Translations under genes and position numbers: made by a program
NCBI RefSeq assembly: GCF_014695975.1
Contig: NZ_JACJPI010000058.1
Location: 186,001-250,000 of the forward strand
Source: Leptolyngbya sp. FACHB-321
Lineage (GTDB): Bacteria > Cyanobacteriota > Cyanobacteriia > Leptolyngbyales > Leptolyngbyaceae
Length of the DNA stretch: 64,000 nt
Reading direction: 5' to 3'
Notes under the pieces: generated by a model
What the model saw: only the letters and a program-made list of their open reading frames with translations
Databases searched by the model: none
What the model was told of the DNA's origin: nothing
Shown: one piece after another, positions 2,850 to 57,873 of the stretch
How positions within the stretch are numbered: position 1 is the first letter of the stretch
Layout: each line of letters starts with the position of its first letter

Positions 2850-2877
2850 CTATTCCCGACTCCCTATTCCCGACTCC
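2850..2877. repeat. 14-bp tandem repeat spanning the hydrolase stop codon
   Basis: Two exact copies of CTATTCCCGACTCC (2850-2863 and 2864-2877). It is one of the short polypyrimidine repeats common in cyanobacteria. It supplies the TAG stop of the hydrolase gene and the last few codons before it. Confidence 0.8.
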
Positions 2878-3728
2878 CCAAGAAATTCTCGCATCAATTG
2901 ATTGACTAACTGCGGTTGTTCTTGCTGTACCCAATGGCTGCAATTGGGGATGTAGCGGATGCGGAAATCCTGCACGTATTTTTCGGTGCCGTAGGTCAGT
3001 TCTTTCCCCAAAGCCGCATCCGCTTCGCCCCAGATAAGTAGCGTGGGAACGGTAAGAATGCCCCAATCGCTGGTTGTTAAGCCTTGTTCGAACATATTGC
3101 GGTAATAGTTGAGTGTCGCCGTTAAGGTATCCCGTTTTGCGAACGCATTCTTATACGCCTCAATATCGTCATCGCTAAAGGTCGTTTTATCAACAGCCAT
3201 GCCTTTAAAGGCGGCTTCCAACACTTGAAAATCGTTTAACTGAATCAGTAATTCGGGCAAGATAGGAAGCTGGAAGAAAAAGATGTAAGCGCTACGGAGC
3301 AATTGCTGGGGCGTGCGTAATCCTTCAGCAAACTTGGCGGGATGGGGTAGATTCAGCACAATCAGGCGATCGATCAACTCTGGATACGCATAGGCAAACG
3401 ACCAGGCGATCGCGCCACCCCAATCATGACCGACTAAGACGCAGCGAGCGTAGCCCAAACCTTCAATCACACCTTTGATATCCTTGATAAATTCCGCCAT
3501 CACATAAGCAGACTGTGCTTCTGGCTTGTCGCTATCGTTGTAGCCACGCAAGTCTAACGCCACGACTTTGTGATCTCTGGCAAACTCTGGAATTTGATGT
3601 CGCCAGGAGTACCAGAACTCTGGAAAGCCGTGCAGCATCAGCATGAGCGGACCTTCGCCTTGAGTCACATAATGCAGCTTGATGCCGTTGGTGTGAATCG
3701 TGTCGTGGTGCCAGGATGCTTCAGACAT
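2850..3728 (-). CDS. Alpha/beta hydrolase, epoxide-hydrolase-like
   Basis: An alpha/beta-fold hydrolase of about 292 residues. [11 protein letters not shown] is the HGxP oxyanion motif of epoxide hydrolases. The nucleophile elbow GHDWGG carries Asp rather than Ser, as in epoxide hydrolases and haloalkane dehalogenases. The acidic residue lies in [11 protein letters not shown] and the catalytic His in [13 protein letters not shown]. The start is ATG 3728; the TTG six bases upstream is less likely. The last residues (ESGIGSRE) and the stop codon are encoded by a 14-bp tandem repeat, so the native C-terminus has been replaced or extended. It lies immediately upstream of the epimerase gene; the substrate is unknown. 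Confidence 0.87.
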
Positions 3729-13077: not shown

Positions 13078-13185
13078 GGACTTACCTGATGTTAGTGAAA
13101 GCGAGTGGATTACAGTCTTTTATTGTGCCATAGAGGGGATGGAGGAAGGTAAAAGCAAGAAGGCAAAAGTAAAGCCTTCAATCCC

Positions 13186-13312
13186 TAGCGTTTAGCGTTC
13201 AGCCCTCAGCGTTTAGCGTTTAGCCTTCTGCCCTCTGTTCCCTTCCGCCTTTTGCCTTCTGCCTTCTGCCTCTTGCCTCCTGCCTTTCGCCTCCTGCCTT
13301 CTACTTTTTGTC
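13186..13312. repeat. Short tandem repeat block (GCGTTTAGC and CCTTCTG units)
   Basis: About 125 bp made of degenerate short repeats. First come repeated GCGTTTAGCGTTCAGCCCTCA-like units, then many CCTTCTG/CCTCCTG/CCTTTTG heptamers. The block fills the space between chlI and the cupin gene and runs up to the cupin 3' end. The same heptamer family appears at 15276-15312 and, inverted, at 57834-57873. Confidence 0.8.
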
Positions 13313-14937: not shown

Positions 14938-15314
14938 GACGTGCAAAAGTAAAAGTGTAAAAGCAAACTTGCGGCAGAGTCCAAAATTTTACCGTCTGCG
15001 TTTTGCTTTTTAACAGCTTTATCTCTACTGACTTGCACTAAAAGGGCATTGTCTCCCTTACTTAACCTGGCAAAACTTATTTGCTAGCAGCACGTACAAG
15101 CGGTTGGTTTCTTGATGCTTAAACAGCGATCCTCCATTTGTGTCAGTTTTACAGCCCTTTACGCACGCAGATCATCATCCCTCACAGCTCATTAGTACAA
15201 GAGCCTGGCATATTGCAGAAACGGCTGTAACTACAGATAGCTAAGGCGAAAAGCAGGCAACTGAATTGCTTCTACCCTCCGCCTTCTGCCTTCTGCCCTC
15301 CGCCTTTCACCCTC
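14938..15314. other. Intergenic region between ntrC and bioY, with heptamer repeats
   Basis: No gene or recognisable riboswitch was seen. The left end is A/T-rich with repeated AAAAGTAAAAG-like words just upstream of bioY. The right end (15276-15312) holds CCTTCTG-type heptamer repeats directly after the ntrC stop. Confidence 0.45.
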
Positions 15315-17991: not shown

Positions 17992-18381
17992 ATGACTTTT
18001 GACTATCCCGGTGATTTGAAGTACCTGGATTCGCACGAATATGCCCGTTTAGAGGGGGAGATTGCGACGATCGGCATTAGTGCTTTTGCCATTGATCAAC
18101 TAGGCGACATTGTGTTCTTAGAGCTGCCAGAGATGGGAGACGCAATCACAAAAGGTGAAAAATTTGGCACGGTCGAATCAGTCAAAGCCGTAGAAGACCT
18201 CAACTCTCCTGTTACTGGCACCGTTATTGATATCAACGCACCGCTGATTGAAGCACCAGAGCAGCTAGCCGACGACCCCTATGGTGAGGGGTGGCTGCTG
18301 AAGGTGAGAGTAAACGATCCAGGTGATGTCGATGATGCACTCTCGGCAGATGAGTATCGTCAGCAGGTTGAAGGCGTATGA
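17992..18381 (+). CDS. gcvH: Glycine cleavage system H protein
   Basis: A 129-residue lipoyl carrier shuttling the aminomethyl group from P to T protein. The lipoylated lysine is K65 in [27 protein letters not shown] and the C-terminal [10 protein letters not shown] are typical. AAGGAGA lies 7 nt before ATG 17992, a strong ribosome binding site. It is 31 bp after gcvT. Confidence 0.97.
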
Positions 18382-18653
18382 GGGGATACAAGGATGAGGG
18401 ATAAGGGATGAAGGCTAAATGTTCTGAGTTGGGCGAAAGGAGGGATGAGGAGCGTTTGAGTCAGCTCTGCTGACTGAATCTGACCTCTTAGCCTTTCGCT
18501 TGCCTTATTCCTTCTTCGGACTCACTGTTTTTACCTTTTCTCTGTCTCCCAGCGCTTTTTGCTCAGATATTGCAGAATATGAAAGTAGTCTGCCGTAGTG
18601 TGTAGCATTGCTAACTGCACCCGATCAAGCGCTACTTGTTCGCTACCCTCCTA
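18382..18653 (+). other. gcvH-gcvP spacer
   Basis: A 270-bp spacer between genes that are otherwise in order. Its left part consists of degenerate GGGATGAGGG/AAGGATGAGG repeats of the same purine-rich family as elsewhere in the window. A separate promoter for gcvP is possible, but no convincing -35/-10 pair was seen. Confidence 0.4.
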
Positions 18654-21763: not shown

Positions 21764-22822
21764 TCAAGCCATAGCGGCTTCTGTATCCGTCAACATCTGC
21801 AAGCGAATCGTACGATCGCCGCCTCCTGTGAGGGCAGTTTCGATGATGTCACCGGATAACGGAGAAAGGCAACTCAAGAGCGATCGCAAATGAGGCGTAC
21901 TGGCACCGCTATCGAGATAGAGCCGTTCTGACAAGGCATTGAGGCGTTTCCAGGTGAGGTAGAGTTTTGTCACTGTCTGCTCAAGCTGGGCTGCATGGTT
22001 GACTAGATCGGCAGCGGAACTAAGGCAACCCAAACGGAGTGCTTCTTCGAGCGCCAATTCTAGATCTAGGGATGGGTTATTGAGCGCCTGCACGTTCGTC
22101 GCCGCTTCGAGATAGCGCCACAGGTAACGGGCTTCGGAGGTGGCTTGCTTCAGCGTATCTACATCGGGCGTTTCGGCAACCGCGTCGCGAATGGAGATTT
22201 GGTGGCTTTCTGGCAGCTTCTGCATTTCCTTCACTAGCGGAGCCAGGTATTTTGCCGGAATCGTGTGATCAGCCGCTTTCTGCTTGACTTCTGTGGGCAA
22301 CAAATCTGAGGTCATAGCAGTCCAGTCATCCGAAAGCTGACGGACTTCGCGACGAGTGATGCGATCGCCCCGATGCGCTGCATCGCTGACCATTTGCTGC
22401 ACTTCGGGAGCTGACTGCGCCGTTTCGACAAAGGCGCGTTTGCTAAACTGGTTGACATCCTCTGGCTCTAGATAGCCGCCATCCAGCAGCGTATCGGCGC
22501 TGTTTGCCAACTCAATCATTGAGTACGCTTGGCTTTTGCTGATTTCTCGGTCTTTCAGCCAGTTAAGAAACCCTGTGCCACGTCCATCGCCATGTCGCTT
22601 TTCGCGATCGCGCACTGCCCGCAAGATGCGCCCGCGCCAGATGTTGGTTTGTAGGTCGAAGCGATCGCAGACCTGCCATGCCTGCTCCACTTGCTCCTGA
22701 AAATCCAGTTCGGGGATTAGCTCATCTTCTGGGTCAGGCAGCCGAAAGTGCATATCGACATTCGGTTCAAAGGCTCTAGAAACGCTATGGATAGCGTCTA
22801 AACTTGGGGGTGCTTGTACCAT
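21764..22822 (-). CDS. Uncharacterised cyanobacterial protein with DUF3102/HTH-like region
   Basis: A 352-residue soluble acidic protein whose function I do not recognise. Residues about 60-110 (RGRILRAVRD, GTGFLNWLKDREISKSQAYSMIELANSAD) resemble the L..V...L..G.F..WL...I..S..TAY..M pattern of DUF3102 and KorB/ParB-like helical modules. A helix-turn-helix-like RGDRITRREVRQLSDDW follows near 150-168. The C-terminal half is helical (LVNHAAQLEQTVTKLYLTWKRLNALSERLYL). A DNA-binding or replication/partition-associated role is inference only. It is convergent with gcvP. No operon partner is visible. Confidence 0.75.
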   Translation of the reverse strand: MVQAPPSLDAIHSVSRAFEPNVDMHFRLPDPEDELIPELDFQEQVEQAWQVCDRFDLQTNIWRGRILRAVRDREKRHGDGRGTGFLNWLKDREISKSQAYSMIELANSADTLLDGGYLEPEDVNQFSKRAFVETAQSAPEVQQMVSDAAHRGDRITRREVRQLSDDWTAMTSDLLPTEVKQKAADHTIPAKYLAPLVKEMQKLPESHQISIRDAVAETPDVDTLKQATSEARYLWRYLEAATNVQALNNPSLDLELALEEALRLGCLSSAADLVNHAAQLEQTVTKLYLTWKRLNALSERLYLDSGASTPHLRSLLSCLSPLSGDIIETALTGGGDRTIRLQMLTDTEAAMA

Positions 22823-23129
22823 TAGCGTGCTCGGACGACAGTCGCATCATTATGGCACGCCTTGAGAGAGGCTGGGAAGAGAAGGAGGAATGTGTTTTTG
22901 CCTTTTCCCTCACAGATACTCTAGATCAAGATTCATTGGGGTTTAGAGGTGTACGATCGTGCCAACAGTTGCTTGTGTGCCCTAGAGGTGCTGGATGGAC
23001 AACGGCGCCCTTACAACAAACCGAATGTGACAAAACGTTGCTCTCCATAACTATCTGACGGATAACCTTATGAGTAGCTTTGGGACGGTATATCGCTCTT
23101 TGAGCATTTTTGAGTACCGCAAATAACCT
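22823..23129. other. Intergenic region
   Basis: About 307 bp between the 352-residue gene and the broken kinase gene. The 75- and 84-codon frames here have no ribosome binding site or recognisable sequence. Nothing else was seen. Confidence 0.4.
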
Positions 23130-23674
23130 TTATTTTGCGCGTTCTAGTTCGACAGTTCGGTAGAATTCTTTCACATGCTTAAGAGACTGAAGATGATGGA
23201 CCCGCTTGCTTTCCTTCGCTTTGTCCACATACTCTCGATACTTTGGCGTGAGCTTCTTATTGCATAGCCAAACCGTATAGTAACTGTTCAGCGTACCCTT
23301 CAAGAGCGGACTATTCTTAGGCCAATTTTCCGGTGGAACTAGAAAGCCTTTCAAGAATCGCTTTGTTACCCACCAATAGTGCTGGAGAACTGGCATATCT
23401 ACATATATTAAGGTGTCCGCAACCTCTAGTCGTTCCCATACCGTATCCAATGATCCATATCCATCAATGATCCATATCCATCAATGATCCATTGCTCTTG
23501 CTGGAGGAGTTGATCATGAGCAGCTTTATATTCTTCGTAGGGAACTTCTCCATCGCCAGGTTTATACTTCAAAAGGTCTAAAGCGACCATAGGCAAACCT
23601 GTTATTTCTGCTAAGCGTTTGCTGAGCGTAGACTTCCCGCCTCCAGCATTACCAAATACAGCAACTTTATTCAT
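23130..23674 (-). pseudogene. P-loop adenylate-kinase-like (FlaR/topology-modulation type) gene, frameshifted by a 17-bp tandem duplication
   Basis: The 5' part encodes MNKVAVFGNAGGGKSTLSKRLAEITGLPMVALDLL, with Walker A GNAGGGKST, and starts at ATG 23674 with AAGGAG six bases upstream. It runs to WIIDGYGSL and then leaves frame, ending at 23426. The 3' part (VWERLEVADTLIYVDMP to the stop at 23130) continues in the next frame. The break falls exactly on two identical 17-bp copies (23451-23467, 23468-23484). Removing one copy joins WIIDGYGSL to DTVWERLEVADT and gives an intact 175-residue protein, the normal length for this family. It is probably a small-molecule or nucleotide kinase. It is either a fresh mutation, a reversible switch or an assembly error. 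Confidence 0.88.
23451..23484. repeat. 17-bp tandem duplication (TGATCCATATCCATCAA x2)
   Basis: Two exact adjacent copies, followed by a partial third (TGATCCAT at 23485). The unit is 17 bp, so one extra copy shifts the reading frame of the surrounding kinase gene. This type of array is prone to replication slippage. Confidence 0.9.
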
Positions 23675-23689
23675 AGGCGGCTCCTTCAT

Positions 23690-24020
23690 GAATGTTGCTT
23701 TAAACTACTCTCCGGTAGTGAATTTTTACGGTTTAACTAACGGTAGACCAATAAACTCTTTCAGCGTCTAAAACAGATTCCAAGGGTTGTATTACCTTTG
23801 TGAATACTTTTGGATAATTGGTGGGAATAGCAGGTACACGAATGGCTGTGCCCACATTAATACCTCAGCTAGCTAACTATGTATTAAGCGTCACATCTGC
23901 TGGATAAAAGTCTAATTTTTCAGAATTATCTTGCAGAGCTACGGAACAATACTACTTCCTTAAGAAATTAAGAAGGGAAAGTTAAAGGCGGGACGTTTGC
24001 TTGGTGTTGTGCTTCAGAGG
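23690..24020. other. Intergenic region
   Basis: About 330 A/T-rich bases upstream of the kinase gene and downstream of the GTPase pair. A weak imperfect hairpin, CTTAA-GAAA-TTAAG, is near 23964-23977 and may end the GTPase transcript's neighbourhood. No gene was seen. Confidence 0.35.
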
Positions 24021-25562
24021 TTACAAACCTGGCAAGCCAAGCTGCTGGCTCAATTCCTGTCGCAGGCGGTAGATGATGGTGTTAGGTTCTAGCTGATTGA
24101 TAATGTCCTGAATGACGGTATTTGAGCCTTGCGGTCCCCAGCTACAGCCCTGTTCTAGATAGACCTGCACCGCGCGACCAACTGCGTAGGCTCCGTAGCC
24201 TGCAATGCCACCCTGGACGATCGCTGTCCCTGCATACGCCGAAAAACTGGTGGAGGTTTCGATCCCGGCGGCAGCAGCGGCAGCACTTTTACCCAGCCCT
24301 AGCAAGAGACCGCTGCCCAATTCAGACACAAGAAGGCTACCAGAGCTTAAGAAGATGGTTTGCCAAAGCTTGCGGGCTTCGTGGCGGGTGACGGGTAAAC
24401 CGTAGAGTTCCGACAGAGCGCGAATCATGGCGAGATCGGATACGGCTCCACCCAGGAGATCGACGACTGCGATCGGGTTGATGCCCACTGCGATCGCCTT
24501 GTAACGGGCAAACTTCCAGATCAGCGCCTCAGCGTCGGCATTGCGAACATCAAGAATTTTGCTTGCCAGTGCTGCCTCTGCGTCCCGTGCTTGAAACAAC
24601 GCATTTAGCGCTAGCAGCGTCCGTCCTTCCTGCCGCAGAATTGCCAGAATTTTGTGCTTCAGGCGATCGATTTCTACAGGTGGAGCTTCCCACTCATAAG
24701 TGATGCGACCATCTGGCGATTCAACCCGAATTTGTAGCGGAGCCGGATCAGCCGCTACCAAAACGATTTCATTTGCCGATAGCAAGCTCTGAAGTTTCAT
24801 GCCACCAACGTGCTTGGCGGCAAGCTGCTGTAGGTTTTGGTAGATCGCCTGTCGCGTTTGGTCAGGATAGAGATCGACTTTGTTAAACACTAGCAGCAGC
24901 GGCTTTTGTGCCTGACGCAAATCACAGAGCGCTTGATATTCAGTGCGTGTAATATCACCAGCGACGACAAATAGAATCAAGTCCGCCTGCCGCGCAATGT
25001 CCTGCGCCATTTTTGCCCGTGCCTGCCCGTCGATTTCATCCAGCCCTGGCGTGTCGATCAGTTCAACCGTGAGGCTCTTTGTATCAGAGGCTAGCGCCAT
25101 CGTGCCAACGGTCGTTGCAGCGCTCTCCACAGTGCCTCCTGGCGACCAATAGATCGATTGCGGTGCCTGAGTTACGCCGTTGAGCGGTCCAGTCGGCAGC
25201 AGCTTTTGACCCAGCAGCGCATTCAGCACTGCCGATTTGCCGCGACTGACCAAACCAAAGACAGCAACGCGAACCACCTGGCTTTCCAGCTTATTTAGCG
25301 TCACGGTCAGTTGCTCCAGGTCGCTGCGAAGCATTTCGCGATCGGTGCCGCTGGGCGATCGATTTTTGTCAGCTCGAAAGAACGCGTTGTAGCGAGTCAA
25401 TGCCTGCCGTAAACTGCTCCGGGCGCGGTTCAGGTACGATTCTTGCAGGTCAATGGCTGACCCCGATCGCGGCGTCTGGTCAGTTGGAGGCAATTCAGTT
25501 TGAGGCAATAGAGGTTGGGTCAAGGCTGGAAACCGAAAGACGAACGCTAGATCTATTCTCAT
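24021..25562 (-). CDS. Era-like GTPase with DUF697 C-terminal region
   Basis: About 513 residues. The GTPase domain has G1 GLVSRGKSAVLNALLG, G3 IDTPGLDEIDG and G4 FNKVDLYP, all canonical. A DUF697-type hydrophobic region follows (ARYKAIAVGINPIAVVDLLGG, then two Gly/Ala-rich segments likely to insert in a membrane). Such proteins resemble YcjX/EngA-like or small dynamin-like cyanobacterial GTPases; their function is largely unknown. The 5' end overlaps the upstream GTPase gene. ATG 25562 overlaps it by 68 bp, while TTG 25493, just after the upstream stop, would avoid overlap. The start is therefore unsettled. Confidence 0.85.
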   Translation of the reverse strand: MRIDLAFVFRFPALTQPLLPQTELPPTDQTPRSGSAIDLQESYLNRARSSLRQALTRYNAFFRADKNRSPSGTDREMLRSDLEQLTVTLNKLESQVVRVAVFGLVSRGKSAVLNALLGQKLLPTGPLNGVTQAPQSIYWSPGGTVESAATTVGTMALASDTKSLTVELIDTPGLDEIDGQARAKMAQDIARQADLILFVVAGDITRTEYQALCDLRQAQKPLLLVFNKVDLYPDQTRQAIYQNLQQLAAKHVGGMKLQSLLSANEIVLVAADPAPLQIRVESPDGRITYEWEAPPVEIDRLKHKILAILRQEGRTLLALNALFQARDAEAALASKILDVRNADAEALIWKFARYKAIAVGINPIAVVDLLGGAVSDLAMIRALSELYGLPVTRHEARKLWQTIFLSSGSLLVSELGSGLLLGLGKSAAAAAAGIETSTSFSAYAGTAIVQGGIAGYGAYAVGRAVQVYLEQGCSWGPQGSNTVIQDIINQLEPNTIIYRLRQELSQQLGLPGL

Positions 25563-27189
25563 CCAGCATACTAACTTCTTGACGTTCACCCAGCGCTTCA
25601 CTTAAGGCAACCACCGTTTTTAGGGGCAGACGTAAGGGTTCTGCTGGTGCTGTCGGTGTAGAGAGCGGCGGCAATGCCGTAAGCGGAGCCTGCTGGGATG
25701 CTGCTGGCGAAACAACTCGCTCCATTGCCTGCCAGACAAAGTTTTGCAGAAACGCCAACTGCTGATTTTTTTGGAAGACCGATTGCACAATTTGACTAAA
25801 ACGCTCGATCGCCAACGGGCTAGCCTCCGTAAGCGTGAGATTTGGCTCCTGAGCATCGAAATATTCAATCAGGCTCAAGCCAACAATACGGGTCAAGTAG
25901 GCAGCGCTGACGCCCTGGATGCAGCCACCAGCAACGTAGGTAAGGGCATTGACTTTTAGCAGGCTAGCGATCGCCTGAGTCGAAAGCTCTACCAGACCTA
26001 GCTTCAGGATCAGGCTACCCAGCGTTGTTGCCATTTTCTGCGCTTGCTGGAGCGAAAACTTTTGTCGATACAGCGTGCCTAAGTCAAGAATCATCTGAGC
26101 ATTGATTGCAGCCGTCGCCAGCACATCCAGCGTTGGGATTGGGCTAGCAAACGCCGCGCCTGCTGCCACCCACTGAAACTGTTCCACCACAGGCAATGCA
26201 CGGGTACGACGGACATCACTCAACACTGTTTTTGCCTGGGTTTTAAGAGTGACCGCATGATTGAGAGAGCTTGCTAGCACCAGTTGCTGGCTTTCTTGTG
26301 CCAAAATTTGCTCTAGCCGCTGTGTCAGATCAGTTAAAGCGGGCGGTTGTGCTTCTAGCCACTCCTTCACTGCCCCATCGGGCTGATGCTGCCTCACTTT
26401 GATGGGGTTGGGTGCAGCAGCGATCGTGACCACATCCCCAGCAGAGAGTACTGCCCCCATGTGCAGGCGGAGTTGCTCCAGGACTATTTGGCGATCGGTG
26501 GGCAGGTATTGATCCAGCTTGTTAAAGACCAGCACCGTGCGCTTGTTAGCAGCCAAGCGTTTTACAACTTGCAGTTCCGACTCGGTAAGGTCGCCTGTGA
26601 TCACAAACAACACTAAATCTGCCCCGATCGCCGCTTGCAGTGCCAAAAGGTCAGCAGTTAAGCCGATCGTTGTAGTCGCATCAAAACCAGGCACCTCAGT
26701 AAAATGCAGTGTTTGCGACACCTCGTTACCCCAGGCTGACTGCAACAACTGGCAGAGAGTGGTCTTGCCTGTGCCCTTTGCGCCCATCACGGCAATGCGA
26801 AGCTCCTCCCGATTCAGGTCGTTGGTCAGTTGAGCGACCTGGGACTGTAGTCGCGACACACGAGGCTGTGCTGCCGCGCAACTAACTTTCTCGGCTGGAT
26901 CATCAATCTCTGCTTTAAGGTGAGTAATCACCTGCTTGACCTCTGCCAGCGTTCGCTTCATGGTCGCAGAATCAACCATCAGCGGTGCTTGAGGGGTTGT
27001 TCGCTTCTGCTCTGACCGTTTGTTCGACCACTGCACACCAGCTGCGCCCAACAGCGCAAACACCGCATAAAGACCCCATTCGCCTGCAAGGTGATGGAGA
27101 ATGTCCAAACCCCCAGCGCTCAGTGCTAGCAGGCTACCGCCAACAAGAAGGGGACGTTGCATGAATAGGCGTTGCAGGTTCGCAGTCAT
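25495..27189 (-). CDS. DUF697-type GTPase, partner of the downstream GTPase
   Basis: About 564 residues. Two short hydrophobic segments lie near the N-terminus (residues 15-55). The GTPase domain has G1 GAKGTGKTTLCQLL and G4 FNKLDQYL. At G3 the expected DxPG Asp is Glu (HFTEVPGFD), a change at a Mg2+/switch II position that may lower hydrolysis. The C-terminal hydrophobic region (FQWVAAGAAFASPIPTLDVLA onward) parallels that of its neighbour. The overlapping order and shared layout suggest duplication and a heteromeric pair; this is inference. I chose ATG 27189; the frame also opens at TTG 27195. Confidence 0.85.
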   Translation of the reverse strand: MTANLQRLFMQRPLLVGGSLLALSAGGLDILHHLAGEWGLYAVFALLGAAGVQWSNKRSEQKRTTPQAPLMVDSATMKRTLAEVKQVITHLKAEIDDPAEKVSCAAAQPRVSRLQSQVAQLTNDLNREELRIAVMGAKGTGKTTLCQLLQSAWGNEVSQTLHFTEVPGFDATTTIGLTADLLALQAAIGADLVLFVITGDLTESELQVVKRLAANKRTVLVFNKLDQYLPTDRQIVLEQLRLHMGAVLSAGDVVTIAAAPNPIKVRQHQPDGAVKEWLEAQPPALTDLTQRLEQILAQESQQLVLASSLNHAVTLKTQAKTVLSDVRRTRALPVVEQFQWVAAGAAFASPIPTLDVLATAAINAQMILDLGTLYRQKFSLQQAQKMATTLGSLILKLGLVELSTQAIASLLKVNALTYVAGGCIQGVSAAYLTRIVGLSLIEYFDAQEPNLTLTEASPLAIERFSQIVQSVFQKNQQLAFLQNFVWQAMERVVSPAASQQAPLTALPPLSTPTAPAEPLRLPLKTVVALSEALGERQEVSMLDENRSSVRLSVSSLDPTSIASN

Positions 27190-27409
27190 AGCCAAAGATG
27201 TAGAGGTGCGGTCATCCAGAGCGGGCTACCGTTTGCACATAAACCTACAGATGACACCAGATTCACGACCTGGCACGCATCTCACACGTTAAATTGACGG
27301 TCCCTCTCTCATTCTATCGGGCATTGATCGGGTCAGAGCGATCGCTGTGAAATCAGGGCTGCAAAATAAAGAGTGCCTGTCAGCAACGGCTCCTTAAGCA
27401 AACGTAAGT

Positions 27410-32927: not shown

Positions 32928-33845
32928 AGCTAACCCCAAATGTAGGCAGTGTGAGACCGAAGCACTTTTCTCTCACAATTTAAGACGGGCGCTTGAACGT
33001 GCAGCACTAGACAGATGGATGAGCATTATTAGTAAAGCGTCTGTCTCGACTGAGAGCATTGCTTGCCTCCATATCTTCTTTCATCCTAGTGTCCAAAGCG
33101 GTTTGATGACCGTTGAAGGGCAAGCATTGTTGGCAGACACTTTGGTTGTAGATACTCTATGCAAGAGTTTTTGTCAGCGTTCTGTCGATAAAGGCAAACT
33201 CTGGCTAGCGCTGCCAGAAACTAACCCCCGTTTCTACCTTAGAGTGCCCATCTTGAAGACATAACCGCATGATCACTGGATTACTGCCATACTTTTCTAC
33301 TGCTCTACGTGCGTACTATGTTGCTCCTACCTCTTAAGTATGAAAAGTGCTCCTACCTCTTAAGCATGAAAAGTGCAAAAACTTAGTAAGATTTAAGCTA
33401 TTAATTGCGTTTGAAAAGTCCTCTTTTATGGCTCAGGCAGCGGATCTTAGCTTTGATGCTACAGTGCTGTGGGATGTAGTGCATACAATTGATAACCGCT
33501 ATATTTAATAAAGTGATGATGGTTTCTATCAGCACTTGAACGATCTTAGATTGACTGTAGTAGTGGTTGTTAAAGTCATGATTACAGAGTAGTAAGGTTG
33601 GCCTTTGCTTCGGTACGAAACTGTCATACTTAGAGGTCTGGTGCATTGGCGAAGTTTGCTGGATGAGTACGTTAGCTTTCACTGGGTGTAAAGGCTTAAA
33701 TGCTTGGTTTGTTACGTGAAATCAGCGCATCTACTGAAAATTACGTTGCTTTCTGTAATTGCTCTTGTCGTACGTTCGGTCTTTGGGCTAGGGGACGCGA
33801 GCGCCTTTTAGTGGTCGCAACGGCAGAGTTTTTTTGGTGCTTACC
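32928..33845. other. Long intergenic region with a 26-bp tandem repeat
   Basis: About 900 bp between the FHA gene and the next hypothetical gene. Frames of 93-131 codons exist but lack ribosome binding sites, and their products look like random translation. The only clear structure is the tandem repeat at 33323-33374. Confidence 0.45.
33323..33374. repeat. 26-bp tandem duplication
   Basis: Two adjacent 26-bp copies (33323-33348 and 33349-33374) beginning GCTCCTACCTCTTAAG. They differ at one position (T/C). The sequence is noncoding. Confidence 0.85.
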
Positions 33846-57796: not shown

Positions 57797-57833
57797 TCAG
57801 AAGGCAGGCTTCCTAGAGCGTCAGCCGACGGGA

Positions 57834-57873
57834 GGCAGAAGGCAAAAGGTAAAAGGCAGAAGGTAAAAGAAGA
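57834..57873. repeat. Purine-rich heptamer repeat (AGGCAGAAGG units)
   Basis: Repeated AGGCAGAAGGCAAAAGGTAAA-type units. This is the reverse complement of the CCTTCTGCC family at 13186-13312 and 15276-15312. It lies directly after the small membrane protein gene. Confidence 0.75.

What the first reader, a model, noticed from the sequence alone, without database searches (positions are those of the whole stretch)
23426..23689. Exact 17-bp tandem duplication that breaks, and could restore, a P-loop kinase gene
The frameshift falls on two identical 17-bp copies. Removing one makes an intact 175-residue protein with the normal sequence across the join (WIIDGYGSL-DTVWERLEVADT). Short exact tandem copies of this kind revert by replication slippage, so the locus could be a phase-variable on/off switch rather than a dead gene. 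An assembly artefact is also possible.
Basis: seen in the sequence. Interest (0 to 1): 0.7.

Follow-up and report, generated by a model that had tools for sequence, protein, structure and literature searches.

The report
17-bp duplication breaking a kinase gene
In this cyanobacterium a small, horizontally travelling kinase gene appears to have been knocked out recently by a 17-letter stutter of its DNA; it could in principle heal itself, but nothing found here shows that the cell uses it as a switch.

Summary
In detail: a 17-bp unit stands 2.65 times in perfect tandem at 23448-23492 and throws the minus-strand gene 23130-23674 out of frame, leaving a P-loop fragment (stop at 23426) and an open C-terminal fragment (23130-23450). 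The gene is an adenylate-kinase-like P-loop kinase. Of 87 homologous genes with both halves, 0 carry the duplication. A close relative, L006, holds a 10-bp direct repeat at exactly this spacing, the only one of the 87 with one at this site: the microhomology that would seed such a duplication. The half behind the frameshift is not decayed (dN/dS 0.08-0.18, as in relatives), so the break is recent. The gene is patchily distributed, sits in a ~730-bp block shared between unrelated neighbourhoods, and 4 of 87 homologs are broken in other ways, so loss is ordinary for it. Verdict: a recent, probably single-event slippage duplication in a dispensable, laterally acquired gene. Reversion is mechanistically plausible; selected phase variation has no positive support; assembly error cannot be excluded without reads.

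The parts
23448..23492 (-). 17-bp unit in 2.65 perfect tandem copies (23448-23464, 23465-23481, 11 bp of a third at 23482-23492); site of the +17 frameshift
23426..23674 (-). 5' fragment of the kinase gene (82 aa from the likely start at 23674, 87 aa from the upstream ATG at 23689): P-loop GNAGGGKST, first strands up to IIDGYGS, then an out-of-frame tail and stop
   Evidence: start inferred from AAGGAG at 23682-23687 and from relatives
23130..23450 (-). 3' fragment of the kinase gene (106 aa open frame), up to 87-91% identical to the C half of the closest relatives, no further stops
23682..23687 (-). Shine-Dalgarno-like AAGGAG, present at the same place in 6 of 12 relatives aligned
   Evidence: seen; function inferred
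23053..23784 (-). Block of DNA (gene plus about 75 bp downstream and up to about 110 bp upstream) shared at 80-87% identity with other cyanobacterial genera, with unrelated DNA outside it

Best explanation
A recent loss-of-function allele made by one microhomology-seeded slippage event. The single-copy gene already held an 11-bp direct repeat at 17-bp spacing, an accident of its coding sequence (a 10-bp version is shown for a close relative; for this lineage it is inferred). Misalignment of the nascent strand by one repeat copied 17 bp, which is not a multiple of 3, and so split a laterally acquired, dispensable adenylate-kinase-like gene into a P-loop fragment and a C-terminal fragment (the split is shown, the mechanism inferred). 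The N fragment keeps the P-loop and the first strands but loses the later strands, the conserved WVTKR helix and the rest of the fold, so it is expected to be inactive (inferred from the model of a relative). The same repeats make loss of one copy, and so restoration, possible at a low frequency (inferred from precedent); nothing indicates that this has been selected as a switch.
For: Array and frames. 0 of 87 homologs with both halves carry the duplication. L006 (lowest dS to the window at the N half) has ATGGATCATT twice at spacing 17 at this site, its longest direct repeat within 100 bp; the window has 11 bp in the same register. The C half is not decayed: window versus 12 relatives dN/dS 0.08-0.18 behind the break and 0.05-0.22 before it; six pairs among the relatives give 0.08-0.15 and 0.05-0.10. 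Conserved-site changes: 1 in the window (G46D), 0-2 in the others. Loss is common: 4 of 87 homologs broken (L003, L034, L045 by TGG-to-TGA, L013 by several frameshifts). Patchy distribution: 11 of 42 genomes of the order, this one included, have a match at E<=1e-20. Lateral movement: shared block with unrelated flanks, neighbours at other places in congeners, copies on conjugative plasmids. No second copy in this genome.
Against: Absence of decay is equally expected if the gene is switched back on often, or if the duplication is an assembly or sequencing error. No read data and no second strain of the species were available. The seeding repeat is seen in one relative only; the ancestral state in this lineage is inferred. 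Dispensability is inferred from patchiness and from broken homologs, not tested.
Confidence: 0.72

Rival explanations
1. A phase-variable contingency locus: the 17-bp array gains and loses a unit often enough that populations hold both ON (1 or 4 copies) and OFF alleles, and this is selected.
For: Exact array with 28 bp of self-homology at period 17; an undecayed 3' half; single-copy ON form known from relatives. Precedents for reversible short tandem duplications in coding genes: passages of PMC4022640 citing Waite et al. 2001 and 2003 on pneumococcal capsule genes (primary papers not read), a 16-bp duplication in Cryptococcus SOG2 that reverts by excision, MTDs in fission yeast ssp1 as told by the review PMC13207564 (passages; the primary paper was not held).
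Against: 0 of 87 homologs show the expanded array and 1 of 87 has the seeding repeat, so the repeat is not maintained. The product is an intracellular nucleotide-kinase-like protein, of a kind not usually phase-variable (general knowledge). Broken homologs are broken by changes that do not revert by slippage. Two-to-three-copy arrays probably switch slowly: PMC4022640 puts reversion of a 9-bp insertion at no more than about 1e-5.
Confidence: 0.1
2. Assembly or sequencing artefact: the organism has one copy and the contig is wrong.
For: Draft assembly in 91 contigs; relatives are uniformly single-copy; the half behind the break looks fully constrained.
Against: The array (45 bp) is shorter than common short reads, the locus is unique in the genome (one match), and no other mid-gene frame-breaking exact tandem duplication was found in 776,352 bases of the assembly, so the assembly is not visibly prone to such errors.
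Confidence: 0.13
3. A split but working gene: the N fragment and a C fragment started at the internal TTG (23450) are both made and associate, or ribosomes reinitiate.
For: The C frame opens with TTG about 22 nt before the N frame's stop, an overlap that could allow coupling; both halves look constrained.
Against: No relative has a split form (in 86 of 87 homologs both halves lie in one frame, the exception being the decayed L013); no ribosome-binding site was recognised by eye before the TTG; constraint is explained by recency.
Confidence: 0.05

Closest known systems
Spontaneous short tandem duplications in pneumococcal capsule genes (Waite et al. 2001, 2003; seen only as citations in PMC4022640)
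   Same: Short exact tandem duplication inside an ORF causes a frameshift and can be lost precisely
   Different: There, by title and citation, both alleles and their switching were observed; here one assembled allele only, in a cytosolic kinase-like gene of a cyanobacterium
Microhomology-mediated tandem duplications (MTDs), fission yeast ssp1 (review PMC13207564, passages read), and the 16-bp SOG2 duplication of Cryptococcus (PMC3464208, passages read)
   Same: A short segment (for MTDs one between two short direct repeats) is duplicated, breaks the frame, and can revert by loss of one copy
   Different: Eukaryotes with observed revertants; no reversion shown here
NCBIfam NF005994 / PRK08118 'DNA topology modulation protein'; RefSeq 'adenylate kinase' on cyanobacterial plasmids
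   Same: Intact relatives match over nearly the full profile (E about 1e-22); RefSeq names the plasmid copies adenylate kinase
   Different: Score 79 bits against a curated cut-off of 215; function untested

Membership tests
Phase-variable (contingency) locus by tandem repeat | Repeat tract with unit not a multiple of 3 inside the ORF | tested here: met
   17-bp unit, 2.65 copies, frame broken
Phase-variable (contingency) locus by tandem repeat | Copy number varies between strains or relatives, or the repeat is maintained | tested here: not met
   Relatives only: 0 of 87 homologs expanded; seeding repeat of 10 bp in 1 of 87. Same-species strains were not available
Phase-variable (contingency) locus by tandem repeat | Both ON and OFF alleles occur within a population | not testable with these tools
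   no reads
Microhomology-mediated tandem duplication | Duplicated segment is bounded by a pre-existing direct repeat in the single-copy form | tested here: met
   L006: 10 bp at spacing 17 at the same site; the window's register gives 11 bp. For the window's own lineage this is inferred
Microhomology-mediated tandem duplication | Reverts to single copy | not testable with these tools
   needs culture or reads
Recent pseudogene | Frame broken, homologs intact, little further decay | tested here: met
NF005994 DNA topology modulation protein (equivalog) | Score over the curated cut-off (215 bits) | tested here: not met
   79 bits for two intact relatives; 57.5 and 21 bits for the two window fragments
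Adenylate-kinase-like P-loop kinase fold | P-loop and fold similar to adenylate/NMP kinases | tested here: met
   Model of relative L026, pLDDT 83.0, pTM 0.78; 9 of the 10 best PDB matches are adenylate kinases, adenylate-kinase-like proteins or a gluconokinase, E about 1e-5 to 5e-6, TM 0.4-0.6: fold class met, close kinship not shown

The most novel reading that the evidence does not exclude
The coding sequence of this kinase accidentally contains a slippage-prone repeat, and populations of this cyanobacterium hold a standing mixture of active and inactive alleles by gain and loss of the 17-bp unit: a slow reversible switch on a horizontally acquired nucleotide-kinase-like gene.
Probability: 0.1. 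Interest if true: 0.5.

Novelty: new member of a known kind. Interest (0 to 1): 0.2.

Why it matters
It is a clean natural example of how a chance 10-11 bp repeat in a coding sequence can seed an exact, frame-breaking and potentially reversible duplication in a bacterium, with the presumed precursor visible in a relative. It also reminds annotators that such a gene is broken by one possibly revertible event. It does not change any general view.

Tried and rejected
Integron cassette or mobile-element ends around the shared block: only two 9-bp palindromes in the two flanks searched, no Rfam match at E<=1, the stretch 23000-23140 occurs once in the genome; rejected. Phage carriage: 4 distant matches (27-29% identity) among 50,697 phage records and none confirmed among viral contigs. 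Deep decay of the 3' half: rejected. A tendency of this genome or assembly to such duplications: not seen in the sampled part. The other two arrays with a frame-end signature are at a boundary between two different genes (2850-2878) and at the 3' end of a methyltransferase-like ORF (L161:11177-11199). Promoter and terminator scan: 3 promoter-like sites against 2.3 expected, no terminator; uninformative. Solved structures by sequence: weak matches with the N fragment, none with the alignment profile at E<=0.01. Pfam: no family over its cut-off. Literature on cyanobacterial reversible duplications: (12 of 16 papers listed) brought none with a bp tandem duplication in a cyanobacterium in its listing; brought no closer case in their listings; PMC4748119 was opened and is unrelated (passages); PMC10530614 gave general slippage background only (passages). 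A search on the FlaR name was swamped by unrelated words.

Full report
What is there. The window lies in a 6.7-Mb draft genome of 91 contigs. On the minus strand a 17-bp unit is repeated 2.65 times without a mismatch at 23448-23492. The frame that begins with a P-loop runs through it and stops at 23426; the frame that continues the protein is open from 23450 to 23130.

What the gene is. The fragments match NCBIfam NF005994 over adjoining parts of the profile, far below its cut-off; two intact relatives match it over nearly the full length at about 79 bits against a cut-off of 215. RefSeq calls the plasmid copies adenylate kinase. A model of relative L026 (pLDDT 83.0) resembles adenylate-kinase-like proteins in the PDB at TM 0.4-0.6. 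In that model the strand at 67-70 ends with the WIID motif, just before the break; the strand at 87-91, the helix at 95-111 with the conserved WVTKR, and all that follows are missing from the N fragment.

Is the duplication shared? Of the 102 loci are other genes with both halves (see Tried and rejected for what was dropped). None has the duplication. In 86 of 87 the two halves are in one frame; the exception, L013 in G009, is a decayed copy. Only L006 has a direct repeat of 7 bp or more at period 17 at this site, ATGGATCATT. In the window the same register gives 11 bp on either side of the unit. So the single-copy form probably carried the seed, and one slip by one register gives exactly what is seen. 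Repeats of 11 bp or more at periods 12-40 are not rare in this genome: 39 rows in 376,352 bases, parts of multi-copy arrays included, so the seed is ordinary; the duplication is the rare step.

How old is the break? Against 12 relatives the half behind the break has dN/dS 0.08-0.18, the half before it 0.05-0.22; six pairs among the relatives give 0.08-0.15 and 0.05-0.10. From the three-way distances of window, L006 and L026 (arithmetic by hand) the window's own branch carries about 6 nonsynonymous and 13.5 synonymous changes behind the break (ratio of rates about 0.12), and 4 and 5 before it (about 0.23). One change hits a position kept in at least 97% of homologs (G46D); homologs have 0-2 such changes. 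There is no sign of relaxed constraint, so the event is young compared with the divergence from these relatives, or the gene is often restored, or the assembly is wrong. These three cannot be told apart without reads.

Is loss unusual for this gene? No. Three homologs have a TGG-to-TGA stop inside an otherwise whole gene (L003 in the same genus, L034, L045) and one is decayed (L013): 4 of 87. In the order, 11 of 42 genomes, this one included, have a match at E<=1e-20. The gene sits in a block of about 730 bp that is 80-87% identical in G007, G035, L026, L027 and L030 while the DNA on either side differs from genome to genome. In congeners the two neighbouring genes lie apart, for instance about 81 kb apart on one contig in G003, and no congener has a copy closer than 61% at the N half, whereas other genera reach 88-93%. 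Copies are on conjugative plasmids of Acaryochloris and Pseudanabaena. This is a gene that comes and goes.

How likely is a switch? A tandem array of this kind can contract: a 16-bp duplication in Cryptococcus SOG2 was excised in revertants under selection (PMC3464208, passages); a pneumococcal study reckons reversion of a 9-bp insertion at no more than about 1e-5, citing Waite et al. (PMC4022640, passages). So the allele is probably revertible at low frequency. That is a property of any such mutation and not evidence of a selected switch; the repeat is not kept in relatives, and no expanded form was found in them.

Base rate. In 776,352 bases of this genome (40 stretches including the window, about 12% of the assembly, mostly from one contig) 21 rows of exact tandem duplications of unit 10-100 were found; three have one frame closing and another opening next to them, and only this one lies within a single recognisable gene. 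Five further rows with non-triplet units of 14-19 bp do not show that signature.

Verdict. Ordinary in kind: a recent tandem duplication, probably seeded by microhomology, that has frameshifted a dispensable, laterally moving kinase gene.

Noticed in passing
window 23053-23784: The kinase gene with about 75-110 bp on each side forms a block shared with other cyanobacterial genera at 80-87% DNA identity, with unrelated DNA outside; no element ends recognised. The gene appears to move alone.
   Followed up: partly
L003 (G005), L034, L045: Three homologs have TGA in place of a conserved tryptophan codon in an otherwise whole gene; in L034 and L045 it is the same tryptophan, the first of WWVTKR. 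Recurrent nonsense at one site or coincidence.
   Followed up: partly
window 2850-2878: 14-bp unit in 2.07 exact copies at the 3' end of a 294-aa hydrolase-like ORF, between it and a 393-aa ORF.
   Followed up: partly
window 33322-33376: 26-bp unit in 2.1 copies (96%) in a stretch without an ORF of 70 aa or more.
   Followed up: no
window 13183-13302, 15269-15306, 18378-18419, 57833-57869: Arrays with period 7, 14 or 21, like the short heptamer repeats known from cyanobacteria (recalled).
   Followed up: no
L161:11505-11808: QTQAQLEQTQNQL-type repeats (units of 42 and 84 bp) in the C-terminal part of a methyltransferase-like ORF of the same genome.
   Followed up: no
window 24021-27195: Two neighbouring GTPase-like ORFs of about 526 and 566 aa; the pair is kept in congeners G001-G004, but in another place relative to the 352-aa ORF at 21764-22822.
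   Followed up: partly
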